DNA of 64,000 nucleotides from Anaerococcus vaginalis (lineage in GTDB: Bacteria; Bacillota; Clostridia; Tissierellales; Peptoniphilaceae), in the NCBI RefSeq assembly GCF_000307225.1, contig NZ_HE978619.1:63461-127460 (forward strand), in the 5' to 3' direction. The position numbers and the translations under genes are program-made. Positions 1,759 to 20,374 of this stretch are shown here, one piece after another; position 1 is the stretch's first letter; each line of letters begins with the position of its first letter. Under the pieces are notes generated by a model that worked only from the letters and a program-made list of their open reading frames with translations, did no database searches and had not been told where the DNA came from.

Positions 1759-2563
1759 TTAATTCATAATCTTGTAATCAAACTGTTCCTGTTTATTTTT
1801 ATTTTATCTCTATTTGTTAAATACTCTTCCACATCAAACAAGTTTTTCTTATCATAATCTTCCAACAACTTGTAATTCTTATGCTTTGTAATATCGAATT
1901 TATCAGATAGAAAAGGTCTTACTCCTCTTAACTGATAAATACACTTACCGCCATCCATTACAGTTATTTCATCTTGACTCATAAGTTCCTTGCCAGTTTT
2001 TTGGTAATTTAGACCAAAAGATTTTTGATTGGATCTTGTTTCTGATGTGTTATATAGGTCTATGGTTTCTTTTCCTAAGGTTTCAGATAATTCTTTTACT
2101 GTTGTTTTTTCTTTTCCTCCTAAAAAGAGTGTAGAGTCGCAGTTACCAACTATTGTATCTGCATGGTCTTTATAGATTGCTTTTAATTGAGATTGTGCTT
2201 GCAGTATTATGCTTGCCGATATTTCTCTTGAACGAATTGTTGCAATCAATTTTTCAAATTTAGGAATTAATCCTATATTTGCAAACTCATCAAGTAGACA
2301 CCTAACATGAACTGGAAGTCTTCCACCATACACATCATCTGCCTTATCACATAGAAGATTAAATAGTTGAGAATACATTATTGAAACTACAAAGTTAAAG
2401 GTATCATCTGTATCTGATATTATTACGAATAAAGCAGTTTTTCTATCTCCAATTTTATCAAGCTCTAATTCATCTTCGCTCATTAGTTCTCTAAGCTCTC
2501 TTATATCAAAAGGTGCAAGTCTTGCTCCACAAGATATTAGAATTGACTTGGCAGTTTTTCCTG
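1759..2563 (-). pseudogene. virD4: virD4 C-terminal fragment (third piece of interrupted coupling protein)
   Basis: This piece starts at the IME1 junction with GKTAKSILISCGARLAPFDI and continues through CLLDEFANIG, the Walker B region of VirD4/TraG coupling ATPases, to SDKFDITKHKNYK. The natural start of the gene lies about 18 kb away at 20374. The frame ends in INRNSLITRL*, but adding one A in the AT run near 1795 gives a more family-like tail (KQEQFDYKIMN*, stop at 1759), so I place the end there. Alone the piece lacks Walker A and the membrane segments and cannot act. Precise loss of both IMEs would rebuild a protein of about 600 residues, the normal VirD4 length. Confidence 0.85.
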
Positions 2564-2577
2564 TAACAACTTGTCAA
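2559..2577 (-). promoter_or_regulatory. IME1 left end with outward -35 box (half promoter)
   Basis: On the minus strand TTGACA (2572-2577) lies 8 bases before the CAGGA core. Inside virD4 no -10 follows at the right distance. In a circular IME1 the right end would place TAGAAT 17 bases downstream, forming a promoter for the recombinase, as is known for the circular form of Tn4451. The box is seen; the function is inferred. Confidence 0.65.
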
Positions 2578-2584
2578 GGACTTT

Positions 2585-2770
2585 CTAATCATTTTTATGA
2601 GGTTTTTTATCTTTTTCTCGCTCCATTTCTCTAAGCATTATCCTTTTCAATTTATCTTGCATAGTTTCAGTCGCATTTTCATTAAAATGGACAATAACCT
2701 CATAAGTTACTTTTCCAATCTTTTTTATAGTCTTTGTTCCTGTATTATGTTCATTTTTATTTTCGTGCAT
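2585..2770 (-). CDS. tnpW: TnpW-family small transposon protein
   Basis: A 61-residue charged protein with the pattern of Tn4451-type TnpW: KTIKKIGKVTYEVIVHFNENATETMQDKLKRIM. An upstream in-frame ATG at 2800 is possible, but the ATG at 2770 has GGAGGG at the right distance, so I prefer it. It lies at the left end of IME1, just inside the junction, whereas the paralogue in IME2 lies next to its recombinase. The function of TnpW is not established; a role in element regulation or DNA binding is a guess. Confidence 0.75.
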   Translation of the reverse strand: MHENKNEHNTGTKTIKKIGKVTYEVIVHFNENATETMQDKLKRIMLREMEREKDKKPHKND

Positions 2771-2798
2771 ATTAGTTTCCCTCCTGTTAGTTGCAATC

Positions 2799-2832
2799 AA
2801 AAAAAAGACGATAGAGTTTTATTTCTACCGCC
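2799..2832 (-). terminator. Rho-independent terminator after ORF6N gene
   Basis: On the minus strand GGCGGTAGA pairs with TCTATCGTC (two G-U pairs) and is followed by eight T. It lies between the ORF6N gene and tnpW. Confidence 0.7.
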
Positions 2833-2882
2833 TTTCACAAGTCTTATAGCTATTCATTTAATAACGCTTTAGCATTTACATA

Positions 2883-3890
2883 TTAAATTTTCAAATCCTT
2901 ATTACTCAGCATTCCGCCAAACATCGTATGATACATATCCTTGGAAGATTCCTCTATTTTTGTAATACTTGATATTTTATTTCCTGCGTCCTTTGATGAC
3001 GCTCCGCAAAGATAAAAGGCTTCACTGTCTGTTCCGTAGTCAATGGCAATATATCTATCGTGATACTTTTTACCTGCAATTTTCATCTTCAGATTGATAT
3101 TAGGGTAATCTTTTCTAAAATCGTTTAGGATATTTTTTGTCAGCATATCCTTGTTTTTCACATTGTCGCTAAAGACTATAATTTCAACATTGTCTTTTGC
3201 AGCCCTTAATAATTCTAAGGTTTTCAAGCCTATATAGTTGTCTATCACATAAATACTTTTCTTTGCAGACTTATATATTTTTGTATAGGCAACATCTGCT
3301 TCAATCTTATCTCCGTTCATTAAAAGGAAATGCTTGTATGTGTCCGGATCTATAAAATTATCCATAACCTTTTTCAAATCTTCTTTTGTAGCCATTTGCG
3401 ACTTTATTTCAGCTATATCCTTTGTGTTTTGATTTGTCTGTACTGCTATTTGTACCAATTCTTTTGAGCTAATAAAATCTTGATTTTCGATTATAAAGTC
3501 TTTCATCTGCTTAAATGTTCTAACTAAGGCTCTGCTTTGCTTAACAGCAAGTTCACCCCTTAGTACAGTCATAAGCATATAGATTCCTTGTTCTGTAAAG
3601 GCATAAGGATTGTATTTAATATTACTTCCTCTACCAGTCCCTCTGTTCAAGGTGAAATTTTTGCACCTTGAAAGTTCTACCATTTCTTCGTCCGTTAATT
3701 GGAACATGAAGTCTTCACCTTCAAATTTTTCTGCGTTGTTTTTCACCTGTCTATTAAAGTTTTTTGTTTCATAACCATATATTTCAGCTAAATCTGCATC
3801 AAGCATTACTTTTTGCCCACGAATAAGATATATTTTTTCTTGTATAGTTTTATCATCTACAATAACTATCTCTTTATTTTCTTCTGCCAT
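2883..3890 (-). CDS. ORF6N-domain protein with PLD-like C-terminal domain
   Basis: Residues about 10-110 form an ORF6N DNA-binding domain (IYLIRGQKVMLDADLAEIYG, FMFQLTDEEM, YAFTEQGIYMLMTVL), known from phage and mobile-element regulators. Residues about 190-330 look like a phospholipase D-like fold: KYHDRYIAIDYG followed by FYLCGASSKDAGNK, a variant of the HxK motif lacking the normal lysine. The ATG at 3890 is chosen because GGAGGTG precedes it. The gene follows the DUF1413-like gene by about 20 bases, so the two are probably one operon. It could be a regulator with a sensor domain or a nuclease; the missing HxK lysine argues against classical PLD catalysis. Confidence 0.75.
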   Translation of the reverse strand: MAEENKEIVIVDDKTIQEKIYLIRGQKVMLDADLAEIYGYETKNFNRQVKNNAEKFEGEDFMFQLTDEEMVELSRCKNFTLNRGTGRGSNIKYNPYAFTEQGIYMLMTVLRGELAVKQSRALVRTFKQMKDFIIENQDFISSKELVQIAVQTNQNTKDIAEIKSQMATKEDLKKVMDNFIDPDTYKHFLLMNGDKIEADVAYTKIYKSAKKSIYVIDNYIGLKTLELLRAAKDNVEIIVFSDNVKNKDMLTKNILNDFRKDYPNINLKMKIAGKKYHDRYIAIDYGTDSEAFYLCGASSKDAGNKISSITKIEESSKDMYHTMFGGMLSNKDLKI

Positions 3891-3911
3891 GAAATGCACC
3901 TCCAACATTAT

Positions 3912-4235
3912 CTAAATTCTTTTATATTTTTCTACTCCGCCTTCAGCTTTTCCGATGTGTTCCACATTTTTTACAAGTCTCTTATTTACATTTTCATAAA
4001 ACCATCTGCCAATCAATGCCGGCGGTGTTGCGATTAACTCTCTCAAAACAAATTCTTTGCCTTTCGGTAAAGAGCTAATTTTGTTTAATAAGGTAGTATA
4101 TAGGTCAGCATAGCTTGTATTTTCTTGTAAACTGCTACACTTACAATATTCAGTAACGCTTGGGAAACCTCCCTCTATTGCTTTTTTAGTTAAAATTTCA
4201 AGTTCTTCATCGGTTACAGTAAATTGAATTCGCAT
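3912..4235 (-). CDS. DUF1413-like small protein
   Basis: This 107-residue protein begins MRIQFTVTDEELEILTKKA, which looks like a ribbon-helix-helix-type opening, and continues with a segment (ISSLPKGKEFVLRELI ... LIGRWFYENV) resembling DUF1413. Proteins of this kind occur in mobilizable elements beside relaxase and replication genes. The function is unknown; small DNA-binding accessory protein is a reasonable guess. It shares a probable transcript with the ORF6N gene. An AT-rich region with possible promoter elements lies upstream at about 4240-4330. Confidence 0.6.
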   Translation of the reverse strand: MRIQFTVTDEELEILTKKAIEGGFPSVTEYCKCSSLQENTSYADLYTTLLNKISSLPKGKEFVLRELIATPPALIGRWFYENVNKRLVKNVEHIGKAEGGVEKYKRI

Positions 4236-4407
4236 TTATATACCCTCTCCTTATAACTGAGTTTATTACCATATCACTATCATTTTATCATAAATACGAT
4301 ATTTTTCCATACTGCAATTTTAAGCCCTATTTTACACTTAGCTATAGTCTGATACCTATTTTATCATTAACGCTCTAAAAACACCTTTCCACCGTCTTAT
4401 ACGAGGT

Positions 4408-5160
4408 CTACAAGTGTTCCCCCTTGTCATAATCTTCAAAGGTATATACTTTTGATTTATGGCTTTCTTTTAATTTACCTTTATCTTGCTCATACCAATG
4501 AACTAAGGTCGCATAATGATCTTTATAGTTTCTTCCCGTGCTTTGCATATAGGTTGACAGCTTCTCTATCATTTCTTCCCTATGACCTTGCATTTTATCC
4601 TTTAACTTCCCATATTCTTCATCGGTTAAGGAAACATTTTTATATTCTCCATAAAGGTTGGGGGATATTTTTTCTATCTCCCCCTCTTTTTCTAACTCTA
4701 TATCTATCTCTTTATCTATCTCTATATCTCCGTTGCAGTTTTGTTGCAAAAGGTTGCAAGGTGTTGCACCAGTGTTGCATTGCAACGCTTTTTGTCCTCT
4801 CGATTTTCTTGAACGCCTTGTAGAAGCTGTTTCTGAACCTATAAGACTTGGAATTTCTGTTAAAAAATACTCGTCATTTTCTGTAATTATCTCCATCAAT
4901 CCTTGTGCTACAAGATAATTTACTATAACCATTACATCATCTTCCGTTTCATCAATCGTTAAGGCAAGCTCTTTGATAAAGTCTGTTTCTACTCCATCAT
5001 AATACAGCTTCCCACTATCTTTTAAACTAAGTAAAAGCAATTTAAGATAAATGATTGTATAGGTATCTCCTCCTGATATTTTTCTTAGCCTTTTGATTCT
5101 CTTATCTGTAAAAAAATCTTCTTTCAATTTTAACCAATAGTATCTTCTGTTGTCTGCCAT
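4408..5160 (-). CDS. Phage-type replisome organizer / replication initiator
   Basis: The N-terminal 110 residues (RRYYWLKLKEDFFTDKRIKR, GDTYTIIYLKLLLLSL, IVNYLVAQGLMEI) match the phage replisome organiser N-terminal winged-helix domain. The C-terminal 75 residues (YGEYKNVSLTDEEYGKLKDK ... TYMQSTGRNYKDHYATLVHW) form the helical domain also present at the end of the ICE1 RepA protein (22400-23173). Between them is a linker rich in Cys, Asn, Glu and Ile. The DNA coding for the linker holds five phased GTTGCA repeats (4732-4786), as in initiator genes that contain their own origin. The gene ends the relaxase operon (2-base gap to mobA). It suggests that IME1 can replicate when excised. Confidence 0.8.
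   Translation of the reverse strand: MADNRRYYWLKLKEDFFTDKRIKRLRKISGGDTYTIIYLKLLLLSLKDSGKLYYDGVETDFIKELALTIDETEDDVMVIVNYLVAQGLMEIITENDEYFLTEIPSLIGSETASTRRSRKSRGQKALQCNTGATPCNLLQQNCNGDIEIDKEIDIELEKEGEIEKISPNLYGEYKNVSLTDEEYGKLKDKMQGHREEMIEKLSTYMQSTGRNYKDHYATLVHWYEQDKGKLKESHKSKVYTFEDYDKGEHL
4732..4786. repeat. Iteron-like array of GTTGCA inside the replisome-organizer gene
   Basis: GTTGCA occurs at 4732, 4743, 4753, 4763 and 4774 (steps of 11, 10, 10 and 11 bases), with an inverted TGCAAC at 4781-4786. The helical-turn spacing and the place between two protein domains resemble initiator-binding iterons of an internal origin. An AT-rich, low-complexity stretch lies beside it (4685-4730). Confidence 0.65.
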
Positions 5161-5162
5161 TT

Positions 5163-6815
5163 TTATCTTTCCTCCCCTTTATTTTTATAATTTTCTTTAG
5201 CCTTTTCTTTTGCTTTTTGTTTGTACTGACCCTTTCTTTCCTCTTGCTCTTGAAATTTTTTCAGTTGTGCAATTACACTTGGTTTATCTCCCCTCTTAAT
5301 TGCCTTGTCTATCTCTATAGATAAATCTATTCCATACTCATCATTGACAATCTTTACTGCATATTTGATATGATCTATCTGCTTAAATTCGTCTTGAACT
5401 TTAGCTTTATCTTCAGTTAAGTCTTGTATCTCTTTTTCAAGGCTTGATATTTCTTTCTGCCAATCACTCGACTTTATAGCTGATGTTCCAGTAAATTTTT
5501 CTATAGTCTTTCTTGCTTTTTTGTAGTTTTCAATTTCATCTTTATGTGAATTGTAAAATTTATCTTTAAGAAAAGTTTTATCTTTATATTCCTGATATAC
5601 CGCCTTATTTTCTTTGATGATGTCTGCACAAATAAAGCAACGATTTAACTCCTTTATTCTTTGGGTTTTGCTTTGAATATCTTCACTTATCTTTTTACTT
5701 TGCTTTGCCAGTTCAAAAACTTTTTCTTGTAGGTCTGCTATGGTTTGAAGATGATTATCTTTTAGATAGTAGATTGCTTTTACAAATCTCTTTAGGTCTG
5801 CATTTCCCTTTTTTATCTGTCCATAGTAGGATAGATTTTTTGTTTTTTCTCCCTGTATTTCGTTGTAGATAGAAATATATTCATAGAGGTTAAAGAGTTC
5901 TGCTTTGTTCTCCAGTTCATCTTTCTTGGTCTGTTTATACTCATCGTATTTTGCTTGCAGATTTCCAAGTAAAGAGTCTATCCAAGAAGTGATTTCTTTT
6001 ATCTTGTTCTTGATAGCTTTTACTAAAGAGTTATGTTTTTTTATTTCTCTGTTGATGTTTCCTTTGTCGGTTTCGATTCCTTTTTTCTCTAAGGCACTGG
6101 CACTTGCTCCCATGTGAATGGTTGGGATTTCTTCTATTCCTTGTCTTTTGTAGGAACGATGATCCACTCTCTTTTCTTGATGATTTTTTTCTAAATACTG
6201 ATTACAAAGTCTTGCAAAATTCTTTCTCCATTTCTCTGCGTTGCCTTTATCGTTCCAGTCTGTCAGCTCTACTTTTCTTGTTTTGTAGTTTCCGCTTTTT
6301 AGTTTTATCTTTTCTCCGTTTTCATCAAGAACATATTCTTTTTTGCTTTTTGCCTGCCACTCTCCTTTTTCATTGATTGGTCTAAGGGTAGTCATAATAT
6401 GAGCATGGATATTGTTATTTTCTTCATCACTTTCATCATGGATTGCAAGGTCTGCTATCATTCCTTTTGATACAAAATTTTCTTGTATGAAGTCGATAAT
6501 GAGTTTCTTATTTTCTTCAAAGGATAATTCTTTTGGTAGGGCTATGATAAAGTTTCTTGCAAGCTGGGCATTGCTTGCTTTTTCATTTAACTCTACTGAG
6601 TTCCACAAAAAACTTCTGTCTTGAAATTCTTTTGGTACATGGTTAGGTAATAATATTTCTGAATGTAAAAGTCCTTTTTTATTATGATAGTCATGAACTT
6701 CTCCATCCCATTCATTTTTGATTTTCTCACAAGAGATATATGCTGCACTTGCAACTGCCGATTTACTTTTTCCTCTGCTTATCATGGAAATATTAAAGTG
6801 AAATGTTTCTGCCAC
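5163..6815 (-). CDS. mobA: MobA/MobL-family relaxase (MOBQ) of IME1
   Basis: The relaxase nicks oriT and leads the strand into a recipient. The N-terminus has ISRGKSKSAVASAAYISC with the likely catalytic Tyr26, and NIHAHIMTTLRP provides the HxH metal motif. The usual YRSGEKI is YISCEKI here, a divergence worth noting next to an active-looking domain. Residues about 250-550 are long charged coiled coil. The start is GTG at 6815 with AAGGAG seven bases upstream. The 550-residue length is normal. It lies between the oriT region and the replication gene and depends on conjugation machinery supplied by another element. Confidence 0.9.
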   Translation of the reverse strand: MAETFHFNISMISRGKSKSAVASAAYISCEKIKNEWDGEVHDYHNKKGLLHSEILLPNHVPKEFQDRSFLWNSVELNEKASNAQLARNFIIALPKELSFEENKKLIIDFIQENFVSKGMIADLAIHDESDEENNNIHAHIMTTLRPINEKGEWQAKSKKEYVLDENGEKIKLKSGNYKTRKVELTDWNDKGNAEKWRKNFARLCNQYLEKNHQEKRVDHRSYKRQGIEEIPTIHMGASASALEKKGIETDKGNINREIKKHNSLVKAIKNKIKEITSWIDSLLGNLQAKYDEYKQTKKDELENKAELFNLYEYISIYNEIQGEKTKNLSYYGQIKKGNADLKRFVKAIYYLKDNHLQTIADLQEKVFELAKQSKKISEDIQSKTQRIKELNRCFICADIIKENKAVYQEYKDKTFLKDKFYNSHKDEIENYKKARKTIEKFTGTSAIKSSDWQKEISSLEKEIQDLTEDKAKVQDEFKQIDHIKYAVKIVNDEYGIDLSIEIDKAIKRGDKPSVIAQLKKFQEQEERKGQYKQKAKEKAKENYKNKGEER

Positions 6816-6949
6816 TTTTAAGCTCCTTTCATTTTTTTGTTTGTTTTCAGGTAAAGGAAAAAGCAGACAGGCTATTTTTTGTATCTTTTCCTATCTGCTT
6901 TATCCGTATGTTTTTATTAAGTTTTGGATTTTCAAAGACTTGTTAAAAT

Positions 6950-6987
6950 CCCTTAGTTTTTCTAAGGGCGCAATTATACACCCTAAA
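6950..6987 (-). other. Putative oriT / nic region of IME1
   Basis: The gap between mobA and the DUF3847 gene (6816-7052) holds, on the minus strand, TTAGGGTGTATAAT, then TGCGCCCTT, then a hairpin CCCTTAG-AAAAA-CTAAGGG. TGCGCCCT is the core of the nick region in IncQ/MOBQ origins. Almost the same block lies beside the IME2 relaxase at 16940-16973. Other hairpin-forming stretches fill the rest of the gap. Confidence 0.65.
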
Positions 6988-7052
6988 GAGTGCTTTGCGT
7001 TCTGCGAAGCTTTTTGCCCTTGCAGGGAGCTTCTGAAAAAACTAAAGTTTTT

Positions 7053-7391
7053 TTATGCTGTTCCCTCAATATCTGTTTCATCTTCCATATCTTTTCCATT
7101 TATCATTTCTTCATAGGCTTGTCTGTATTCTTCTGTGTGAGTAGAGATGTTTAACAGCTTTTCTATATCCTCATTGGTAAACATAAGAGGATTTTTAATT
7201 ACCTTTTCTACTATCAAGCCTCTTTGAATAAGCCTATGATTTCTTCTTGTTCTCTCTTTTTTATTTGCTAACTTGACTAACATTTTTTCTCTATTCTTTA
7301 GTTGTCGTAACTGAATTTCATAGCTTTCTTTTTCTTCCTCAAGCTCTGCAATTTCTATTTGTACTTCTTGTAATGTTTTTTCTTTTTTCAT
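7053..7391 (-). CDS. DUF3847-family protein
   Basis: This 112-residue protein has an N-terminal coiled coil (EVQIEIAELEEEKESYEIQL) and a basic centre (KKERTRRNHRLIQRGLIVEKVI), the pattern of DUF3847 proteins that almost always neighbour MobA/MobL relaxases. A relaxosome accessory role is likely by context and by its place beside oriT, but it has not been shown. A homologue is at the same place in IME2 (16975-17295). Confidence 0.8.
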   Translation of the reverse strand: MKKEKTLQEVQIEIAELEEEKESYEIQLRQLKNREKMLVKLANKKERTRRNHRLIQRGLIVEKVIKNPLMFTNEDIEKLLNISTHTEEYRQAYEEMINGKDMEDETDIEGTA

Positions 7392-7420
7392 TTTCTATTT
7401 TCCTCTATTTCTAATTTTGA

Positions 7421-7460
7421 GCAAAGAAAAAACAGTAAACCTTTTTGATCTACTGCTTTT
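7421..7460 (-). terminator. Shared hairpin/terminator, copy 1
   Basis: The block AGCAAAGAAAA..CAGTAAACC..TACTG forms a hairpin with a T-rich tail on the minus strand, after the membrane-protein gene. Related copies are at 17323-17361 and 14112-14153, all in IMEs. The stem here is shorter (about 5-7 pairs) than in the other copies. Confidence 0.55.
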
Positions 7461-7506
7461 CTCGTTAGCCATTATTTAATTATTAGTTAAACAAACTGAT
7501 AGTTAA

Positions 7507-7782
7507 CTACCAATTAAAATGAGTAATAGCACCTAACACCATTATTAATATCCCGGTCATTCTAATCCAAATTTTTAAATTAGAATATCCTTTATAGTTT
7601 TCAGGTTCTACTGGATTTAAAACAAAAAACAATCCAAAAAGACATGCTCCAATATTAGAAAACCATTTAACATCTGTAACACTGCTTATAATAAACCCTA
7701 AAAACATACAAATAATTCCAATTGTTATTTGCCTATTAAAAGTTAAATTTTTCAAAAATCTCATCCTCTCATAAATTTTCAT
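7507..7782 (-). CDS. Small membrane protein of unknown function
   Basis: The 91-residue protein has three hydrophobic segments (ITIGIICMFLGFIISS, NIGACLFGLFFVL, MTGILIMVLGAI) and a basic N-terminus. No family was recognised. It follows the ABC permease by about 70 bases and precedes the shared terminator, so it may be the last gene of the SdpR-controlled cargo operon. Confidence 0.6.
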   Translation of the reverse strand: MKIYERMRFLKNLTFNRQITIGIICMFLGFIISSVTDVKWFSNIGACLFGLFFVLNPVEPENYKGYSNLKIWIRMTGILIMVLGAITHFNW

Positions 7783-7849
7783 TCATTTATCTCTATATTT
7801 AATTTTATTTTTACTTCATAGGTATTTTCTTTACATCAATTGCAAAACT

Positions 7850-9381
7850 TTACAGATAAGCTATCTCTATACAATTTCCAACAATAATCAACATTAAGCT
7901 GCATAATATGAACATAATCGTTTGATATGACAACTCTAAAAAAATCATCATAGTAACAGGTGTTGCAATCATCAAGATTGCAATAAAATTTGTTAGTATG
8001 GCTGCTGTACTATGCTTAACTACACTTATCTCATCATTCCATTTAAGTTTCATGTATCGCATGTTTAGATAAAGACCTACAACAGAAATAAATAATGAAT
8101 AACATATCGGAACAATCAATACAAAACTCATTTGAAGCAAATTCAATTTAGTTTTCAAAAGAATCATCATTACTGCAAGTACATATCCAACAAAGTGTAT
8201 TAAAACATTAACCGCTATTTTACTATTTATGATTTTTCTTGTAGACACTGGTGATGATTGTAATATCCATAGGTTATTGCCTTCCAATGATATGGACGAT
8301 GATGTAGTGCAAGACATTATTAAAAATGAAGCAATAAACAATGAACCATATTGAGTAAGTATTGATTCCAATGAGCTTATTCCTAACAGATTTTCTATAT
8401 TAGAAATTCCAAATATAATACATCCACATGATACAAAACACAAAATCATAATGCCCAAAGAAGTATTTATCACATAACTACTTGAGCCTAAATACCTCCT
8501 CAATTCTTTTTCAAACAACGCTCTAAATGGTGTTTTTGTCTTAATAATTAAGTTACTCTCTCTTTTCCCTTGAAAACTTCTATTTAGAAATAGATGTATT
8601 TTATCATAATTTTTCATTGAGAAAGTGAAATACAAGCTAAATATCGCAACTGAAATCAACAAGAAAATAACAAGTCTAATTTGTAAACTTTCTCCGATAT
8701 ATAATAGCTTTGCAAAGGGAAATATTTTTATAAGTTTATTCTCAATAATTTTTTCTAACGCTAAATATTTCGCCCCACGATTTATTGATATAACTATAAA
8801 ATATCCCATGAAAAGCAAAAATGATAATGTGATGTTCACAATATTTTTTCTTTTACATAAACTACCTAACATCTCAATTAAAATCGCCAAGCCAGAAGCC
8901 ACACACATAGGAATAATAGGGATAATTATGCTTGCTACTAAAAAAATCAAAAATAGTTCAATTGAAATGTATTGTTTTAATAATAATAAAATTACATCTG
9001 GCAGCAATACGCTTTCACATATAATTAAGTCTATTAAATATAATAGAAAAAACTTACTTGCAATGATTTCAGATTTTTTTACCGGAAAAGAACTAAGCAT
9101 TTCAAAATCTTTGTTATAAAAGAAAATAGAATTACTTCTAAAAATCGTTGCTAAAACCACAAAGAAAAACGATATGGAAACTCCATACGATACAGCATAC
9201 TTATATAACCCAATTTCTATAATTGATTTTATTGAAAAGAAATTGTACAAGCAAACCAACATAAATACAGAAAATAGACTCAATGAAGTATATATCAATG
9301 TTTCTTTTTGTTTTTCTCTCCATTACCGATATTAAGGAGATTGATCACTTGATTTTTTACAAGTATGACAGTATTTTTCAT
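7850..9381 (-). CDS. ABC-2-type transporter permease (frame broken near its start)
   Basis: The protein has about ten to twelve hydrophobic segments and the family signature FYNKDFEMLSSFPVKKSEI seen in large ABC-2-type permeases paired with an adjacent ATPase. An ATG at 9381 overlaps the ATPase stop (ATGA), the usual coupled start, and reads MKNTVILVKNQVINLL before a stop at about 9297. The remaining 480 residues lie in another frame from 9298. One extra A in the A runs at 9301-9315 joins both parts as EKNKKKTLIYTSLS. The gene product together with the ATPase probably exports or removes a hydrophobic or peptide substrate; the substrate is unknown. Confidence 0.75.
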
Positions 9382-11437: not shown

Positions 11438-13312
<1,875 letters not shown>

Positions 13313-13374
13313 TCAATAAAAAAAGAATTAAGAAGTACATATTTCACTAAAATAGTGATTAAGTGTTCTCCTTA

Positions 13375-13389
13375 ATTCTATTACTCCTG
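13375..13389 (-). promoter_or_regulatory. IME1 right end with -10 half promoter
   Basis: On the minus strand TAGAAT (13375-13380) lies 4 bases after the CAGGA core. With the left-end TTGACA joined across one core the spacing is exactly 17, in front of the recombinase gene. In the inserted state virD4 sequence is upstream instead. Confidence 0.65.
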
Positions 13390-14044
13390 CTGCCAGCTTA
13401 TATTTCTTGTATTGCTTAACTGCAAAATGACTTGGATCTTTCTTTTCAAGAGCTTCAAAAAGCCTATCAATTGGGTTCATATAGGTTTCGTCATCTTCTC
13501 TAACCTCACTTGCGTCAATCATATCTAAGAGTGTTTTAAAATTCTTTTCTTCTTCAGGTGCTTCATAATAAATATACCCAATAAGAGCAGTGTAATATAA
13601 CTTTTCAGCCTTTACCCAAAAATCTTCTCCTGCCTTTTCTCCATCTCCCTTGGTGTTAGCAATTATGGTTTGGACAAGCTTTAAAATATCTTTTTCACTT
13701 CTCAAGTATGCAAAGGGATTGTATTTCATAGATTTTTTAAAGTTTATTGTGTTTAATATCTTTATGTCGTAACCATTTTCATAAAGCATTTTTCCACATT
13801 CTAACACAAGTGTGCCTTTAGGGTCTGTTACTACATAGGAAGAATGCATTTGCATTAGATTTGGCTTTACATAAAATCTCGTTTTACCTGATCCAGAACC
13901 ACCTATTACTAATACATTTTTATTTCTGGCATATTTAGGGTTTTTAGGTCTTGAGTTCATTGTTAGTCTTTCGGTATTAGTTATGAGAACATTGTTTTCA
14001 AACTTAGGGTCAATATATGGAGCAATATCCTTACTTTCTCCCCA
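13385..14044 (-). pseudogene. virD4: virD4 middle fragment
   Basis: Between the two IMEs the virD4 frame reads WGESKDIAPYIDPKFENNVL, then the Walker A VIGGSGSGKTRF, then DPKGTLVLECGKML and on to QYKKYKLAAG, where IME1 cuts it. An ATG at 13960 could start a 210-residue product that runs ten codons into IME1 sequence, but that protein would lack Walker B and membrane segments. The match of both edges to the outer fragments (20035-20374 and 1759-2563) shows one former gene. Confidence 0.88.
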
Positions 14045-14060
14045 GGAAGCGTTTTGTCAA
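14041..14060 (-). promoter_or_regulatory. IME2 left end with outward -35 box (half promoter)
   Basis: On the minus strand TTGACA (14055-14060) is followed by 10 bases and the core TGGG (14041-14044). As in IME1, a circle would bring a -10 to the proper distance. Confidence 0.65.
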
Positions 14061-14111
14061 GTACCTTTTTATATTTATGGACGCTCTTTCTGTAAGCCGT
14101 ATTAACTTTTA

Positions 14112-14153
14112 AGCAAAGAAAAACAGTAAACCTTTTTTGATTCACTGTTTCTC
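14112..14153 (-). terminator. Shared hairpin/terminator, copy 3
   Basis: AAACAGTGAATC..GGTTTACTGTTTTT on the minus strand forms a stem of about nine pairs with one mismatch and a T-rich tail, downstream of the DMT transporter gene. Confidence 0.6.
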
Positions 14154-14211
14154 TTTGTTGTATTATGCTTATTTCTTAACGGTTATATAAGTTAAGCCAT
14201 TTTCCAATCAT

Positions 14212-15264
14212 TTATGTGTTTGCATGAGAATGACTGTGTATATGCATAGGGTTAAATATAAAATGTCTATGCTCATGCGAATGTACTACTTTTCCGTGCT
14301 TATGCTGGTGGGTATGGACATATCCATTATATATTTTTTCGTTACCAAGCGTATCTTTTATCATAATCAATGTGCTGATTATCATAATGCCGAGGGCGAT
14401 ATAAAATTTTACTGTTGGTCTTTCACCCAAAATGATAAAACTAAATCCCACTCCTAAAAATGGTGCTATAGAATAAAATGCACTTGTTTTTGCTGCACCC
14501 AAGTTCTTTTGTGCCATAATATAAAAATTTATACTTAAACCATATGCCACAAAACCAAGTAACATAACCGCAAGTATATATAGTATTTCAGGTAGATGTT
14601 CTCCAATGATAAAAGCAATAACAATACTGCCAATACCCGAGAAAATTCCTTTTATTAACACAATTTCCTCAGAACTTTTATCACTTATACTTCTTGTACA
14701 ATTATTCTCAATCCCCCAACAAATACAAGCACATAAAACAAACATTGAACCTTTATTCAGTGCTAATGCTTCCATCCCCTCAAAGCTAAGAATGACGCTT
14801 GATAAAAGTACAAGGACAATAGCAATCCATAATCTTTTAGAAATTTTTTCCTTAAAAATCAAAAGGGCAATGACCGATGTTGCAACAATTTCAAAGTTAT
14901 TAATTAACGAGACATTAGCAGAATTTGTATTGGCAATGCCAAACATCAGAAATATCGGTGCTGCTATATCAAGAACAACCATTGCAATTGTATAAGGTAA
15001 ATCATTTATATTAAGCCATTTTTCGTCAGTCAATTTGTTTTGAGTTTTCTTTATTCCAAGTAATATCCCAATACCAACACCTGCTCCTAAATACAAAAAA
15101 CCGGCAAGCATTGTCGGAGACACATTTGCTAATAATATTTTCGATATTGGTACATTGATTGCATATAATGCTGCTGCTAATATTGCAAAAAATGTAGCTG
15201 TTTTATTTTTACTCAGTGTCAAAGCCCCCTTTCTATCTTTTTTAATATTATACCATTTTTTCAC
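14212..15264 (-). CDS. DMT/EamA-family transporter with His-rich tail
   Basis: The protein has about ten membrane segments with two EamA repeats (ALYAINVPISKILLANVSPT ... LLIFKEKISKRLWIAIVLVL and FSFIILGERPTVKFYIALGI). The last 40 residues are soluble and rich in histidine (HTHQHKHGKVVHSHEHRHF, then HIHSHSH), a likely metal-binding tail and unusual for this family. A GTG at 15264 opens the frame, but AAGGGGG at about 15226 and the segment LTLSKNKTATFF suggest a real start nearer 15220 (TTG or CTG). TATAAT just inside the frame (about 15249) fits its own promoter. It is IME2 cargo; the substrate is unknown, possibly a metal-linked metabolite. Confidence 0.85.
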   Translation of the reverse strand: MKKWYNIKKDRKGALTLSKNKTATFFAILAAALYAINVPISKILLANVSPTMLAGFLYLGAGVGIGILLGIKKTQNKLTDEKWLNINDLPYTIAMVVLDIAAPIFLMFGIANTNSANVSLINNFEIVATSVIALLIFKEKISKRLWIAIVLVLLSSVILSFEGMEALALNKGSMFVLCACICWGIENNCTRSISDKSSEEIVLIKGIFSGIGSIVIAFIIGEHLPEILYILAVMLLGFVAYGLSINFYIMAQKNLGAAKTSAFYSIAPFLGVGFSFIILGERPTVKFYIALGIMIISTLIMIKDTLGNEKIYNGYVHTHQHKHGKVVHSHEHRHFIFNPMHIHSHSHANT

Positions 15265-15270
15265 TTAGTT

Positions 15271-16731
15271 TTATAGGTCTAACTCATTCCTCTTTACCTG
15301 TGATAGTCGCTTTTCGTGTCCCTCTATTTGCTCTATACAGGTTTTAACTTTTTCAGCCTGTTCAACTTCTTCTCGTATCTCCAATATTTGACTGTATAGG
15401 TTCTTTTTCTCTTTCTTCAAAGTGGCAAGTTCTGATTTCCATTTACTGATGGCTAAGGTTTTACTTTCTCCTAAATGGTCTTTCAAATATTTCTTAGCAC
15501 TTTCAAATAAAATAATTTCTGCCGTATGCTCGTTATAAAAATTCCCCTGTTTGCTTTTCTTTGTCTTGGTATAGGCTTTGTAGGTGTCCTTATGCTTCAA
15601 ATATTTTTCTGACTGGTCTATGAGTTTTGTTTTATCATCAACTTTCTTTTCGGTATCTTTTAAGGCTCTTGTGGTCTTGTAATTCTTATCTCGTAAGGTA
15701 ACTATACTTTCTTTTAGCTGGGATAATGAAGTGATATTTTTATCTTTGAGTAGCTGATAACTCTCAATATATTTTTCTAAATCAGCATTATTCTTATCTG
15801 CATTTTCACGGATAAGATTTTCAAAGATTGACTGCAAATTTTCTTTGAGTGGGAGGGTGAACTTTGTATTTTCATTTTCTGTATTTTCTTCTTTTCCAAT
15901 TCCCCTTATCCAATTTAGCAATGCCTTTATTCTTCTTGAGATTTCTTTTAATATCTTGTTTTGATGTATGATTTCTCTGTTGATGTATCCTCTGTCTGTG
16001 GATATGCCTTTCTTTTCCATTTGTGTTGCTGATACTCCTAAATGAATGGTCGGTATTTGTTCTATTCCTTGCCTTAGATAAGAGCGATGATCCACTTTCT
16101 CCTGTATGCTGTTTTCTTCAAGATATTTGTTTGTGATATCTGCCCATGCTTTTCGCCACTCTTCTGCTTTGTCTTGCTCATTCCAATCTGTTGTATTGAT
16201 TTTTCGTGTTTTGTAATTTCCATTTTTGAGTTTTACTTTTTCTCCGTTTTCATCAAGGATATATTCCTTTTTTGATTTTGCTCCCCATGTTGTATCCTCG
16301 TTTAGTGGTCGCATGGTAAGTAATATATGACAATGTGGGTTTCCATCATTTTTATCATGTATTGCAATATCGGCACACATACCTACTTTTACAAAATTTT
16401 CTTTTACATATTCTCGTACAAGATTTATTTGTTTCTCTCGGTCTAATTCTTTGGGTAAGGCTACTTCAATTTCTCTTGCAAGTTGTGAGTTTTTACTCTT
16501 TTCTATTTTTTCAACACTATTCCATAATGTCCCTCTATCTGAAAATTCCTGTGGTGCATTTTGTGGTAAAAGAATTTCTGTATGGGCTATTCCACCTTTT
16601 CTTGTAAAGTCATGGACTATACCGTCATATTCGTTTTTTATCTTCTCGCCACTTCGATAGGCGGAAGCTGCTACTGCACTTTTGCCTTTACCTCTTGAAA
16701 TAATCTTTATGCAAAGATGATATATCGCCAT
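15271..16731 (-). CDS. mobA: MobA/MobL-family relaxase (MOBQ) of IME2
   Basis: The enzyme has ISRGKGKSAVAASAYRSGEKI with the likely catalytic Tyr in its N-terminal 30 residues and the metal motif NPHCHILLTMRPL. DHRSYLRQGIEQIPTIHLG and a long coiled coil follow, as in the IME1 relaxase. An upstream in-frame ATG (16752) exists, but the ATG at 16731 has GGAGG nine bases before it and starts at the family motif, giving 486 residues. The gene is separated from the oriT-like sequence by about 210 bases and is followed by the DMT gene. Confidence 0.92.
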   Translation of the reverse strand: MAIYHLCIKIISRGKGKSAVAASAYRSGEKIKNEYDGIVHDFTRKGGIAHTEILLPQNAPQEFSDRGTLWNSVEKIEKSKNSQLAREIEVALPKELDREKQINLVREYVKENFVKVGMCADIAIHDKNDGNPHCHILLTMRPLNEDTTWGAKSKKEYILDENGEKVKLKNGNYKTRKINTTDWNEQDKAEEWRKAWADITNKYLEENSIQEKVDHRSYLRQGIEQIPTIHLGVSATQMEKKGISTDRGYINREIIHQNKILKEISRRIKALLNWIRGIGKEENTENENTKFTLPLKENLQSIFENLIRENADKNNADLEKYIESYQLLKDKNITSLSQLKESIVTLRDKNYKTTRALKDTEKKVDDKTKLIDQSEKYLKHKDTYKAYTKTKKSKQGNFYNEHTAEIILFESAKKYLKDHLGESKTLAISKWKSELATLKKEKKNLYSQILEIREEVEQAEKVKTCIEQIEGHEKRLSQVKRNELDL

Positions 16732-16939
16732 AGTAAAAAACCTCCTTTCCATTTTCTGATATGGTTATGGTGGAGATAGATAGAACTTCCTAAAAAAATC
16801 GGATAGCTTTTTATCCGATTTCTTTTGGGAAGTACACAAGGGGTAGGAAATTTATTTCCGTAGGGGAGTGTAGCTCCCCCTGTATCAGCGTTAGCTGATA
16901 TGCCCTCTGCTAAGAGCCTTCGGAGAACGCACGCACCTG

Positions 16940-16973
16940 TTAAGGTGTATATGTGCGCCCTTGTAAACAAGGG
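16940..16973 (+). other. Putative oriT / nic region of IME2
   Basis: The plus strand reads TTAAGGTGTATATG, then TGCGCCCTTG, then a hairpin CCCTTG-TAAA-CAAGGG. This repeats the IME1 block at 6950-6987 but in the opposite orientation relative to the mob genes. The rest of the 16755-16975 gap has further hairpins: ATCGGATA/TATCCGAT (about 16798), GGGGAG/CTCCCC (about 16863), TATCAGC/GCTGATA (about 16882). Confidence 0.65.
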
Positions 16974-16974
16974 A

Positions 16975-17295
16975 CTATTCCTCTATGTCCGTTTCTTCCT
17001 CTTGGGTTTCGGTGTTTTGATTTTCCGTTTCTTCTCTGCTTTCAATGATTTTTTTAATTTTGATATTAGCTTCTTCTTTACGAATTAGAGATGTGATTAG
17101 CTGATAAAATTCATCTTTGGTTAAATTCTTACTTTCTGTAAATATGCTTTCAAAGACTGCTCCTTTTTCATATATCCTTTTATCTCTCTTTTTTCTTTCT
17201 TCCTGTTTCTGCTGACTGATGAGCTTTTTCCTTTTGTTTTGTAACTGCCTGATTTCTTCATCTGCCATTAAGATTTTTTCTTCTATGTTTTTCAT
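16975..17295 (-). CDS. DUF3847-family protein of IME2
   Basis: This is the counterpart of 7053-7391: N-terminal coiled coil (KILMADEEIRQLQNKRKKLI), basic centre (QQKQEERKKRDKRIYEKGAV) and an acidic end. I choose the ATG at 17295 (MKNIEEK), preceded by GAGAGG, over an earlier in-frame codon at 17328. The oriT hairpin begins two bases after its stop. Relaxosome accessory role is inferred from constant linkage to MobA. Confidence 0.75.
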   Translation of the reverse strand: MKNIEEKILMADEEIRQLQNKRKKLISQQKQEERKKRDKRIYEKGAVFESIFTESKNLTKDEFYQLITSLIRKEEANIKIKKIIESREETENQNTETQEEETDIEE

Positions 17296-17322
17296 TTTCT
17301 CGTTTCCTCTCTTTCTAATTTT

Positions 17323-17361
17323 GAGCAAAGAAAAACAGTAAACCTTTTTTGATTTACTGTT
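17323..17361 (-). terminator. Shared hairpin/terminator, copy 2
   Basis: AACAGTAAA pairs with TTTACTGTT around a T-rich loop, with a T-rich tail on the minus strand, right after the DUF3021 gene. The similarity to copy 1 extends over about 100 bases upstream of the DUF3847 genes. Confidence 0.65.
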
Positions 17362-17405
17362 CCTGTGGTAATTTTTATTAAATTGTTAGTTCTACAAACT
17401 GGGAT

Positions 17406-17774
17406 TTATTTAGTTAAAGTTTTCCCAAAAATAAAATATGAAATAGTCCATAAAACTATACCTACAAATAAAAATATTCCAAATACTTTTACATAGTCTA
17501 AAACACTATTCAATTTATACCAACCACTTATATATAATAAAGGCAACACTGTTACCAGCATAATTAAGAAGTGTATGACTGATTGCTTAAACAATGACCA
17601 ATTTTCGATTTCATATATTACAGAAGCTGCAGCTACCGAAGCTATAATGATACCAACTATGAATGTCCCTCTAACCTGGAAAGGATCTATCCCTTGATAT
17701 TTCATTATTATTGATATTATTGTCATTATGATTAAAGGAATAATTCCCCTAAGTATTGCTATCTTTATTAACAT
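17406..17774 (-). CDS. DUF3021-family membrane protein
   Basis: The 122-residue protein has four hydrophobic segments and the DUF3021 layout (LRGIIPLIIMTIISIIM ... SLFKQSVIHFLIMLVTVLPL ... GIFLFVGIVLWTISYFIF). Members often sit beside LytTR regulators, but none is here. It occupies the cargo place between TnpW and the relaxase module in IME2. The function is unknown. Confidence 0.75.
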   Translation of the reverse strand: MLIKIAILRGIIPLIIMTIISIIMKYQGIDPFQVRGTFIVGIIIASVAAASVIYEIENWSLFKQSVIHFLIMLVTVLPLLYISGWYKLNSVLDYVKVFGIFLFVGIVLWTISYFIFGKTLTK

Positions 17775-17872
17775 TTAATTACCTCTACAAATTCTAATTT
17801 GTTTATCTATATTGACTAATATTATAGCATTTTTTTCGATATTTTTCTACTGTCATATTTCTCTACTCACTA

Positions 17873-18055
17873 CTATTTGTCCTTTGAATGTATTACTTTG
17901 AACAGCTTATCTTGAAATGTCTCTTTACTCTTTTTATCAAAATATATCTCTGTTACAAAGGTCTTTCCATTTATCTTCTTTGTAAGAATGCCATCGGGCT
18001 TTTGATGTTGTTCTGTCTGTATTTCTTTAATATCTGTTTTCTCATTTTCTGCCAT
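17873..18055 (-). CDS. tnpW: TnpW-family small transposon protein of IME2
   Basis: A 60-residue protein with the TnpW core GILTKKINGKTFVTEIYFD followed by KSKETFQDKLFKVI, similar to 2585-2770. AAAGGAGG lies ahead of the ATG. It directly follows the recombinase gene and its terminator. The role is not established. Confidence 0.75.
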   Translation of the reverse strand: MAENEKTDIKEIQTEQHQKPDGILTKKINGKTFVTEIYFDKKSKETFQDKLFKVIHSKDK

Positions 18056-18079
18056 TTAGTTCCTCCTTTCGACTTGCTC

Positions 18080-18110
18080 AAAAAAAAGATTTCCTGTGAT
18101 TAGGAAACCT
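18080..18110 (-). terminator. Terminator after IME2 recombinase
   Basis: AGGTTTCCT pairs with AGGAAATCT (one G-U) around AATCAC and runs into eight T on the minus strand. Confidence 0.8.
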
Positions 18111-18136
18111 CTTTTGCGATTAATTGATATTTGGTT

Positions 18137-19975
18137 TTAGGTTGTTGCTTGTAGTTTCTTTTTTGCTCTGTATTCTCTTGCTTTTAATTTTTCATACTCT
18201 CGGCACTTTTCAAGATTTTTGGCTCTGTATGCTTTAGAATATGCCCTATGATAAGCTCGTGATTTTTCTCTCCTTGCTTCTTCTATTTCTTCCCTCATCT
18301 GTATCATTTCTTGTTCTGTCGGCTCTATCTGTTTTGTAAGTTCATTTTCAAATTTTCCGATATAGTTAAAATAAACCTCTATTCGTTGAACTACATATTT
18401 TGCTCTTTTTACATCTCTTTCATGCACTGCGATTTTACTGATAAACTCATTGATAATGGTAGGGGTAAGTTCTTCAAAGTTGGAATAGCTTTCTGCAAGT
18501 CTGATAAATTTCTTTGCTCTTTGGTTTGCATTTTCACATTCGGATAAGCGTTCTTTGATTTCTTCTTTTTCTGCTTTTAAGGTGTAGTATTCTTCTGCAT
18601 ACTTTCTTGATAACTGCTCATAGCGTTCTGTATCCAGATTTCCAAGTGCATTATCTTCATAGAGTTTATTCATCACTCTTTCTATCTGTTCCATTCGATC
18701 TGTGATTTGTGGCATACGCTTTTGATTTTTCTTGACTTCTTCGGTCTGTTCTTTATACAGACTCTCTTTTACAAGTTTCTCAAATTCTGCTTTGTTTTCC
18801 AAAGAATACTGTGCTATCTTTCGCAAGACTTCTGCGATATTTTCCATAACCTCATCAACATCAATTCGGTGTGGGGAGTTGCATTTGGGGTGCTTTGCTT
18901 TCCCTTTGGCATATTCACTGCAATAGGTTACATGCTGTACTCTTCCATTTTTGTGTATGGTGCGAATGTGCATTTTTGTTCCGCAATCTTTACAGTACAT
19001 CAAGCCTGAAAGTGCGTGAATTTCTCCATCTCCGTTTGGTCTTTTTACAGGTGCATTTTTTAACATACGCTCTACATTTTCAAAGGTAGTTCTATCTATT
19101 ATCGGCTCATGCACATTTTCTGTTATTTGCCATTTGCTTTTATCTACATAATGGTTTCTCTTATCTCTGTAATGCTTTTCGGTCTTGAAGTTGACTACAT
19201 CACCACAATACTCTTGTCTTTTCAGTATGCGTGTTAGAGTTGCTTTGTTCCAGTTATATCTGTTTTCTTCATTTAGTGGTTTGTTTTTTGCTGTTCCTCT
19301 GCCTTGTTGTTTCATATAAAAGGTTGGGGTTAGTATTTCTTTTTCTTTCAGGTAAACAGCTATCTGATTTCTGTTTTTCCCCTCCATAAATAGCCTGAAA
19401 ATGAGTTTTACAACTTCGGCAGCTTCTTTATCAACGATCCAATAATCTTTGTTCTCAGGGTCTTTTATATAGCCGTATGGGGCTTCTGTTGCGACAGGCT
19501 TTCCGTCTGCTCCTTTGGTTTTAATTCCTGTCTTTACTTTCTTGCTGATGTCTCTTGCATACCACTCTGACATGATGTTGATAAATGGGGCAAATTCCAA
19601 TGTGTTTTGGTCAATGCTGTCTATTCCGTTATTGATAGCGATAAAGCGTACATTGTTTCTTCTAAATATCTCCATCGCATTTCCTACTTGGAGATAATCT
19701 CTTCCCCATCTTGTCATATCTTTCATGATGACAATTCCTATTTTGCCTTGCTCTACATCGCTTATCATCTGTGTATAGGCTGAACGGTCAAAGAACCTAC
19801 CGCTTTCGTCATCGTCGATATAGTGGCGAATGTTTATCAGCTTTTTTTCTCTTGCATACCTTTCTAAAAAGGCTTTTTGATTTACAATACTATTACTCTC
19901 GCCACCGTCTCTATCTTCATCACCAACTGAAAGGCGGGAGTATAGTGCTGTAATTTTATTGTGATATTCTATCAT
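18137..19975 (-). CDS. tnpX: Large serine recombinase of IME2 (TnpX-like)
   Basis: The 612-residue enzyme has the resolvase domain with Ser16 in YSRLSVGDED and MKDMTRWGRDYLQ, the recombinase domain, a zinc ribbon (YCKDCGTK, then YCSEY and PKCNSPHR) and a coiled coil ending in FEELTPTIINEFISKI. It shares the fold and many motifs with the IME1 enzyme but is clearly a different lineage, matching the different target sites. AAAAGGAGG precedes the ATG at 19975. The gene is the first one inside the right end and would be served by the circle-junction promoter. Confidence 0.93.
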   Translation of the reverse strand: MIEYHNKITALYSRLSVGDEDRDGGESNSIVNQKAFLERYAREKKLINIRHYIDDDESGRFFDRSAYTQMISDVEQGKIGIVIMKDMTRWGRDYLQVGNAMEIFRRNNVRFIAINNGIDSIDQNTLEFAPFINIMSEWYARDISKKVKTGIKTKGADGKPVATEAPYGYIKDPENKDYWIVDKEAAEVVKLIFRLFMEGKNRNQIAVYLKEKEILTPTFYMKQQGRGTAKNKPLNEENRYNWNKATLTRILKRQEYCGDVVNFKTEKHYRDKRNHYVDKSKWQITENVHEPIIDRTTFENVERMLKNAPVKRPNGDGEIHALSGLMYCKDCGTKMHIRTIHKNGRVQHVTYCSEYAKGKAKHPKCNSPHRIDVDEVMENIAEVLRKIAQYSLENKAEFEKLVKESLYKEQTEEVKKNQKRMPQITDRMEQIERVMNKLYEDNALGNLDTERYEQLSRKYAEEYYTLKAEKEEIKERLSECENANQRAKKFIRLAESYSNFEELTPTIINEFISKIAVHERDVKRAKYVVQRIEVYFNYIGKFENELTKQIEPTEQEMIQMREEIEEARREKSRAYHRAYSKAYRAKNLEKCREYEKLKAREYRAKKKLQATT

Positions 19976-20025
19976 GGCATTATCCTCCTTTTCTCGTGTC
20001 TATATATCACTCCTGTTCAGTTAAT

Positions 20026-20038
20026 ATTATGCAACCCA
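20026..20038 (-). promoter_or_regulatory. IME2 right end with -10 half promoter
   Basis: On the minus strand the core TGGG (20035-20038) is followed by TTG and CATAAT (20026-20031). Joined to the left-end TTGACA the spacing is 10+4+3 = 17 bases. Confidence 0.65.
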
Positions 20039-20374
20039 TCTTGCAGATCCATATTCCTTGCCTTGCCTATATTTCTTTTTGTTTTTACCTTTGCTGTAAA
20101 CAATTAACTTAACAAGACCAGCAACTGAAATACCTACTAACAAGTCCCTTGGATTAAGGCTTGGTATATAAGATAAAGTTCCTATATCAGAAATTCCCAC
20201 CATTATTTTATCAATAATATCTCCTCCTACATAAGAATTGATGTGCTTAGAAAAGATATTTCCAATGTAGAAGAATGATAGATAGGGAATGTTTGATAAT
20301 ATAAATTTCTTTGGGTTGTCTATTTTAATTAGGTTTTTAATATCAGAAAGAATGGCTTCTAATATCTTATTCAT
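20035..20374 (-). pseudogene. virD4: virD4 N-terminal fragment
   Basis: The start of the coupling-protein gene: two membrane segments (FILSNIPYLSFFYIGNIF and LLVGISVAGLVKLIVY), then YRQGKEYGSARW, where IME2 cuts in; three more codons of IME2 sequence end the frame. The ATG at 20374 overlaps the antirepressor stop and has GAAGG upstream, so it is preferred over a GTG at 20389. Coupling proteins bring the relaxase-bound DNA to the mating pore; this piece has no ATPase core. Confidence 0.88.

What the first reader, a model, noticed from the sequence alone, without database searches (positions are those of the whole stretch)
1759..20374. One virD4 gene cut by two different TnpX-type mobilizable elements
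Three fragments (20374-20035, 14044-13385, 2563-1759) rebuild one VirD4. Joining across the cores TGGG and CAGGA restores ARWGES and AAGKTA in frame. Two recombinases of distinct lineage chose two sites in the same coupling-protein gene, both in conserved motifs. The mobilizable elements thus switch off conjugation of their host ICE and could switch it on again by excising. This looks like a satellite-host interaction.
Basis: partly seen in the sequence, partly recalled or inferred. Interest (0 to 1): 0.82.

Follow-up and report, generated by a model that had tools for sequence, protein, structure and literature searches.

The report
Two hitchhiking elements inside virD4
Two small hitchhiking DNA elements have each inserted at their own fixed spot in the gene that another mobile element needs to move between bacteria; this arrangement was already known from streptococci, and here it proves to be common, with a third such spot.

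Summary
Confirmed: virD4 lies in three pieces around two integrative and mobilizable elements (IMEs), window 2564-13384 and 14045-20034. A near-identical intact virD4 in a sister genome carries the three pieces in order with no gap. Each IME has a large serine recombinase (LSR) and a MobQ relaxase. The arrangement, and the idea that excision lets conjugation proceed, are in print: IMEs at two traG/virD4 sites in streptococci. Clade A sits at site 2 in 36 of 37 copies, clade B at site 1 in 24 of 31, clade C at a third site (DPKG codons) in 21 of 25, with no swaps. Three genomes have all three sites filled. Filled and empty site 2 are scattered at random over the virD4 tree (13 changes, shuffled mean 13.4), and most pieces are not decaying. 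Whether excision restores transfer is untested. New member of a known kind.

The parts
20035..20389 (-). virD4 N-terminal piece (intact-gene nt 1-355; ends at codon 118-119, site 1)
   Evidence: 98.3% to intact L025 allele
14045..20034 (-). IME-B, about 6.0 kb, inserted at virD4 site 1
   Evidence: boundaries from homology breaks against the intact allele, 4-bp direct repeat
18137..19975 (-). IME-B large serine recombinase, 612 aa (Resolvase, Recombinase, Zn ribbon, DUF4368)
   Evidence: Pfam; site-1 clade
17406..17774 (-). IME-B DUF3021 membrane protein
   Evidence: Pfam
16975..17328 (-). IME-B DUF3847 protein (mobilization accessory by position)
   Evidence: Pfam
15271..16752 (-). IME-B MobQ relaxase (MobA_MobL)
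   Evidence: PF03389; NF041496 283.8 bits
14212..15264 (-). IME-B cargo: EamA-family transporter
   Evidence: Pfam
13385..14044 (-). virD4 middle piece (intact-gene nt 352-1011)
   Evidence: 99.8% to intact L025 allele
2564..13384 (-). IME-A, about 10.8 kb, inserted at virD4 site 2
   Evidence: boundaries from homology breaks, 5-bp direct repeat
11438..13288 (-). IME-A large serine recombinase, 616 aa
   Evidence: Pfam; site-2 clade
10444..11043 (-). IME-A cargo: SdpI/YfhL-family protein
   Evidence: Pfam
10155..10463 (-). IME-A cargo: DUF1648 protein
   Evidence: Pfam
9378..10088 (-). IME-A cargo: ABC transporter ATPase
   Evidence: Pfam
7850..9298 (-). IME-A cargo: 482-aa protein next to the ABC ATPase, no family match (possible permease by position, inference)
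7053..7391 (-). IME-A DUF3847 protein
   Evidence: Pfam
5163..6815 (-). IME-A MobQ relaxase
   Evidence: PF03389; NF041496 263.5 bits
4408..5160 (-). IME-A phage-type replisome organizer
   Evidence: PF09681; TIGR01714
2883..3908 (-). IME-A ORF6N-domain protein
   Evidence: Pfam
1764..2563 (-). virD4 C-terminal piece (from intact-gene nt 1007 to the stop)
   Evidence: 100% to intact L025 allele; NF045973 277.8 bits
20367..23173 (-). Host ICE genes upstream of virD4: Bro-N/KilAC, DUF3801, IstB/DnaC-like, RepA_N
   Evidence: Pfam; shared with the sister ICE up to about window 23259

Best explanation
The host ICE has a CD1115-type VirD4, a VirB6-like TrbL, a VirB4-like ATPase and an NlpC/P60 protein. 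Its virD4 gene is interrupted by two independent IMEs of the kind called class 5 in streptococci (serine integrase plus MobQ relaxase, no coupling protein of their own). Shown: the recombinase of each IME belongs to a clade that recognises one fixed stretch of virD4. The element is bounded by a 4- or 5-bp direct repeat, and the recombinase gene sits just inside the element at the end facing the upstream virD4 piece. Inferred: choosing the coupling gene puts the IME inside a helper whose secretion channel its relaxase must borrow; the ICE cannot make full-length VirD4 while occupied; and the IME leaves often enough, or the ICE is replaced often enough, that occupancy does not persist. Confidence below is for the anatomy and site-specific recurrent insertion. 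For the further claim that excision acts as a working switch I give about 0.4.
For: Piece mapping on an intact allele. A sister ICE (G030) is 99.96% identical over the 2.6 kb that hold the C piece, and its virD4 is uncut. A second ICE on the same contig is cut at the same site-2 nucleotides by another IME whose LSR is 90% identical. Site tally of non-duplicate copies with an intact 5' end: clade A 36 of 37 at site 2, clade B 24 of 31 at site 1, clade C 21 of 25 at site 3, none swapped. Tree: 10 label changes, shuffled mean 52.6. LSRs are mostly under constraint: median dN/dS 0.065, 0.079 and 0.056 in 36, 21 and 23 copies. Pieces of cut virD4 genes: 44 of 51 matched stretches free of stops and frameshifts, dN/dS 0-0.13 against intact genes, where intact-to-intact gives 0.02-0.06. 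Site-2 occupancy on the virD4 tree is unclustered, with identical C parts in both states twice.
Against: No circle, empty site or read evidence from this strain. Twelve of 93 copies (1 A, 7 B, 4 C) were not found in virD4; I looked at their flanks by eye only. In one named genome with a clade B copy beside a virD4 N piece (L043) no PF02534 match was found at all, so the rest of that virD4 is lost or not assembled. The low dN/dS of the pieces mostly reflects history before insertion, and single LSR pairs reach 0.577 (clade A). ICE exchange between species could produce the unclustered pattern without any excision. Six of the 16 genomes of the genus with an occupied copy show no intact copy of this virD4 family, this one included (hand count; one more, G013, is unclear), so such cells may have no working coupling protein.
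Confidence: 0.9

Rival explanations
1. Dead end: insertion is a permanent accident that cripples the ICE, and the pattern reflects recent insertions that are soon lost with the ICE.
For: Degenerate virD4 remnants exist (G028 and G029 fragments; L106). In G000 every PF02534 match is a piece of one of two cut genes. L043 keeps only an N piece.
Against: 44 of 51 stretches are clean, with purifying-level dN/dS. The LSRs are constrained across hosts. Cut alleles do not form old lineages, though this fits fast loss too.
Confidence: 0.35
2. Competition: by cutting virD4 the IME blocks transfer of its own host ICE and of later IMEs, while being mobilized by another conjugative element in the cell.
For: 9 of 16 genomes of the genus with an occupied copy also carry an uncut virD4 elsewhere (hand count). 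MobQ relaxases can use foreign channels (recalled).
Against: One insertion does not keep out a second or third: three genomes have all three sites filled. Six of 16 have no uncut copy.
Confidence: 0.2
3. Assembly or binning artefact.
For: The genome is a 19-contig draft, 91% complete.
Against: Same cuts at the same place in many independent genomes, including the single-contig G009 and the complete Streptococcus anginosus J4206.
Confidence: 0.01

Closest known systems
IME_Sco1050_traG_site1 and _site2 (Streptococcus constellatus C1050) and other class 5 IMEs (PMC5357655, PMC5704250; passages and one section read)
   Same: Serine integrase, MobQ relaxase, replisome organizer in some, insertion at two internal sites of traG/virD4 of Tn5252-superfamily ICEs; both sites listed for one strain
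   Different: Other hosts (Anaerococcus group). Not tested whether the published sites 1 and 2 are the same nucleotides; their supplementary tables could not be read
Tn1549_traG IMEs of Streptococcus suis (PMC7168690, passages read)
   Same: IME inside the coupling-protein gene of a Tn1549-like ICE
   Different: One traG target named in the passages seen
Tn6104 of Clostridioides difficile (table row in PMC5704250)
   Same: Serine recombinase IME inside traG/virD4
   Different: Sequence not compared here
Tn4451 / TnpX
   Same: Large serine recombinase on a mobilizable element
   Different: MobV relaxase and many GA targets (tables in PMC5704250); here MobQ and a fixed target

Membership tests
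Class 5 IME (Coluzzi 2017) | Serine integrase | tested here: met
   Both elements
Class 5 IME (Coluzzi 2017) | MobQ relaxase | tested here: met
   NF041496 263.5 and 283.8 bits, cut-off 200
Class 5 IME (Coluzzi 2017) | No coupling protein and no T4SS inside the element | tested here: met
   None among the scanned IME ORFs; a few IME ORFs, and all ORFs under 80 aa, were not scanned
Class 5 IME (Coluzzi 2017) | Insertion at an internal site of a conserved ICE gene with very short direct repeats | tested here: met
   4 and 5 bp
Class 5 IME (Coluzzi 2017) | Excision and mobilization | not testable with these tools
   No reads or experiments
Tn4451/TnpX family | LSR domain make-up | tested here: inconclusive
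   Resolvase, Recombinase, Zn ribbon present; no direct comparison with TnpX itself was made
Tn4451/TnpX family | Low target specificity | tested here: not met
   36 of 37 and 24 of 31 copies at one virD4 site
Tn4451/TnpX family | MobV relaxase | tested here: not met
   MobQ
Host: Tn1549/Tn5252-like ICE | CD1115-type VirD4, VirB6-like, VirB4-like and NlpC/P60 genes | tested here: met
Host: Tn1549/Tn5252-like ICE | Complete ends, own integrase and relaxase | tested here: inconclusive
   MobP relaxase (PF03432) at C4:15660-17030 and a Tn916-type integrase are nearby; the ICE's left end was not fixed

The most novel reading that the evidence does not exclude
VirD4 of these ICEs works as a dock with three berths, each owned by one LSR lineage. 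Berths fill independently, up to all three at once, and filled and empty states turn over faster than the gene itself diverges. Stacked satellites would then form a reversible gate on ICE conjugation in which every berth must be vacated.
Probability: 0.35. Interest if true: 0.7.

Novelty: new member of a known kind. Interest (0 to 1): 0.42.

Why it matters
IMEs in ICE coupling genes were known from streptococci and a few other Firmicutes. Here about half of the virD4 copies I could class in one genus are occupied (22 occupied, 21 uncut; hand count), by three recombinase lineages with one site each, and the same cuts occur in many other genera. The natural pairs of identical virD4 sequences, one empty and one filled, make the open question (is occupancy reversible, and does it gate conjugation?) directly testable by observation. 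The LSRs are also candidates for well-defined site-specific recombinases.

Tried and rejected
Rejected: assembly artefact; random insertion; both sites being conserved motifs (site 2 is not); the Tn4451 family label.

Led nowhere: plasmid searches with both LSRs gave at best 60-63% (clade A) and 45% (clade B) relatives, and no TnpX label among the 20 records listed of 334 and of 295. Anaerococcus is named in none of the 12 papers listed (of 129). FirmiData (PMC9092696) has no mention of traG or VirD4 in its main text. A third traG/virD4 site was not seen in the passages that I read, found by searches; supplementary tables were not readable, so I do not claim it is absent from print. One search looked for PF02534 in nine named genomes whose clade B flank was doubtful: 4 of 9 have a match anywhere, and L043 and L046, which do have a virD4 N piece, were among the nine.

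Rows dropped before the site tally (recounted on the table, 168 rows): 43 exact duplicates, 19 rows whose match lacked the LSR 5' end, 12 rows under 55% identity, and L048 (a frameshifted clade B copy, also at site 1, that the script scored as clade C). The tally covers only copies whose flanks I held: one search gave loci for 30 of its 47 matches, some of the other 17 came in through other calls, and the rest were not examined; two searches gave loci for all 27 and 16. Hand corrections: L057, L046, L051 and L153 were counted at their site although the alignment ran 1-5 residues past it; L116 was counted after reading its flank. In one search, of the 51 stretches, those of L082, L083 and L091 end at contig ends (occupancy unknown), two are second copies (L094, L099), and L106 is a decayed fragment; 4 of the 7 unclean stretches are L094 and L099 second copies, L106, and L083, and the others are L072 and the two divergent L081 and L095. 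In the tree one row (L091) had no state, L106 was counted as occupied, and L226 and L224 are empty at site 2 but occupied at site 1.
Full report
What is there. The window is G000:C4:63461-127460 of a 2.05-Mb, 19-contig genome. One genome of the same genus has a contig of exactly the length of Anaerococcus sp. Marseille-P3915 (contig of L080, L037), so the genus is probably Anaerococcus (inference). On the minus strand the order is: ICE genes, virD4 N piece, IME-B (14045-20034), virD4 middle piece, IME-A (2564-13384), virD4 C piece. An intact virD4 in genome G030 matches all three pieces at 98.3-100%, in order, with overlaps of 4 and 5 nt. Its ICE is 99.96% identical over the 2.6 kb that hold the C piece and has neither IME in virD4.

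A constraint on the work. About 3.8 kb beyond the window's left edge, in the same ICE region, lies tet(M) (C4:57732-59666; NF012155, 1512 bits, cut-off 1420). The sister ICE shows no match of 150 bp or more over the stretch that holds it (C4 51.5-60.7 kb). I therefore treated virD4 as a broken mobile gene beside a resistance gene: described it, searched its pieces apart and joined nothing.

The elements. IME-A: LSR of 616 aa, MobQ relaxase, DUF3847, replisome organizer, ORF6N protein, and a cargo of an ABC ATPase, DUF1648 and SdpI-like proteins. IME-B: LSR of 612 aa, MobQ relaxase, DUF3847, DUF3021 and an EamA transporter. The host ICE has TrbL/VirB6-like, VirB4-like and NlpC/P60 proteins and a CD1107-like protein.

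A second case on the same contig. Another ICE (C4:169927-188081) has virD4 cut at the same site-2 nucleotides by a different IME with FeoB and ABC exporters as cargo, whose LSR is 90% identical to that of IME-A. All four PF02534 matches in this genome are pieces of these two genes.

Survey. In 31 genomes of the genus, 26 have a match to the VirD4 model. Mapping the pieces one by one shows three cut sites, with nucleotides counted from the GTG at window 20389: site 1 at nt 352-355, site 3 at 573-581 (the DPKG codons) and site 2 at 1007-1011. By hand count virD4 copies are occupied at one or more sites and 21 are uncut at all three. Of the uncut, G006:C248 and G010:C2:1682708 were judged from the row alone, and L228 changes frame near its 3' end. 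Copies cut by contig ends (G006:C249, G013:C5 and C10), chimeric (G006:C241), decayed or only weakly matching were not classed. Sixteen genomes have an occupied copy; 9 of these also have an uncut one, 6 do not, and G013 is unclear.

One recombinase clade per site. LSR copies came from three searches of 249 genomes of the order (matches to LSR-A in 37 genomes at E 1e-200; to LSR-C in 23, some of them only about 46% identical; to LSR-B in 15, one of them a clade A relative; the last two at E 1e-150) and one scan of named genomes that returned 42 loci. Of non-duplicate copies whose flanks I held and whose 5' end is intact, clade A lies at site 2 in 36 of 37, clade B at site 1 in 24 of 31 and clade C at site 3 in 21 of 25; none lies at another clade's site (recount 89). 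The other 12 copies were not found in virD4. A tree of 99 LSRs needs 10 changes of the site label against a shuffled mean of 52.6 (quick method, with some long branches outside the three clades). Clade B at 95-100% identity is found beside virD4 in Peptoniphilus, Urinicoccus, Kallipyga, Allofustis, Streptococcus and Eggerthia, and its virD4 targets are as little as 32-38% identical over the N-terminal piece. The copies in Bifidobacterium boum and Alloscardovia omnicolens are not in virD4, and those genomes have no PF02534 match.

Stacking. Three genomes carry IMEs at all three sites of one virD4: G010, G134 (contig length that of Peptoniphilus gorbachii, L038) and G152 (contig length that of Urinicoccus massiliensis, L032). 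In G134 the C piece lies on the same contig, about 14 kb beyond the clade A LSR. In G010 and probably in G152 it lies on another contig, so there the far end of the site-2 element is not shown.

Does occupancy last? On a tree of the virD4 part after site 2 (42 rows, 41 with a state: 18 filled, 23 empty), the state changes 13 times; shuffles average 13.4, and 259 of 500 are as low. Identical sequences occur in both states twice, the window's being one. Of 51 matched stretches of cut genes 44 carry no stop or frameshift, and dN/dS against intact genes is 0-0.13, against 0.02-0.06 among intact genes (a few stretches of unknown state are included, see Tried and rejected). LSR genes are constrained (median dN/dS 0.056-0.079, single clade A pairs up to 0.577; in-frame stops in 3 of 36, 0 of 21 and 3 of 23). 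These results fit frequent gain and loss, by excision or by ICE replacement; they do not tell which.

Site conservation. Across 28 VirD4 proteins (the reference plus 27 of 29 loci from a phylum-wide sample), the DPKG site ranks 1 of 597 five-residue windows, GSARW ranks 12 and site 2 ranks 107. Only two of the three sites can be called conserved motifs.

Known or new. Coluzzi 2017 (PMC5357655; passages, and the section on IMEs within ICEs in full) found 12 of 16 serine-integrase IMEs of streptococci in traG, maff2 or snf2 of Tn5252-superfamily ICEs and proposed that excision on induction of conjugation frees the ICE. Guedon 2017 (PMC5704250, passages) lists traG sites 1 and 2 in one S. constellatus strain, and Tn6104. 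PMC7168690 (passages) lists Tn1549_traG. PMC13214566 (passages) repeats these targets for class 5 IMEs. The finding is therefore a new member of a known kind. The third site, the triple stacking and the unclustered occupancy are additions that I did not see in the passages read.

Noticed in passing
L005:14272-16206 (C4:57732-59666), left of the window: tet(M), with a Tn916-type integrase nearby, between virD4 and the T4SS genes of the same ICE region; the sister ICE in G030 shows no match over this stretch.
   Followed up: partly
window 23602-25514: lysS reads in two overlapping frames, beside the ICE's right edge (about 23259); real frameshift or sequencing error not known.
   Followed up: no
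window 14107-14152 and 17319-17364; hairpin at 7371-7437: A 46-bp hairpin-like repeat brackets the DUF3847, relaxase and EamA genes of IME-B; a hairpin of similar look precedes DUF3847 in IME-A but does not match the same 23-base pattern at up to 3 mismatches. Candidate oriT or terminator.
   Followed up: partly
L079 (G001:C14:22900-36100): Odd arrangement: a virD4 piece ending at site 3, a clade C element, then a virD4 piece that starts again at site 1 and ends at site 2: perhaps recombination between stacked IMEs.
   Followed up: partly
L061, L054, L058, L059, L056: Clade B recombinases whose upstream flank is not recognisable virD4, some with a flank resembling the site-1 core: possible secondary targets; Peptoniphilus asaccharolyticus has both kinds (L048, L061).
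   Followed up: partly
L114:2093-12696 (C4): Nonribosomal peptide synthetase genes near the left end of the contig, next to a MobP relaxase gene.
   Followed up: no
L014 (C4:43431-45032) and L109:3655-5250: A fourth, distant LSR lies between TrbL and virD4 in both the window's ICE and the sister ICE, near another MobQ relaxase in the window's ICE; possibly a further nested IME.
   Followed up: no
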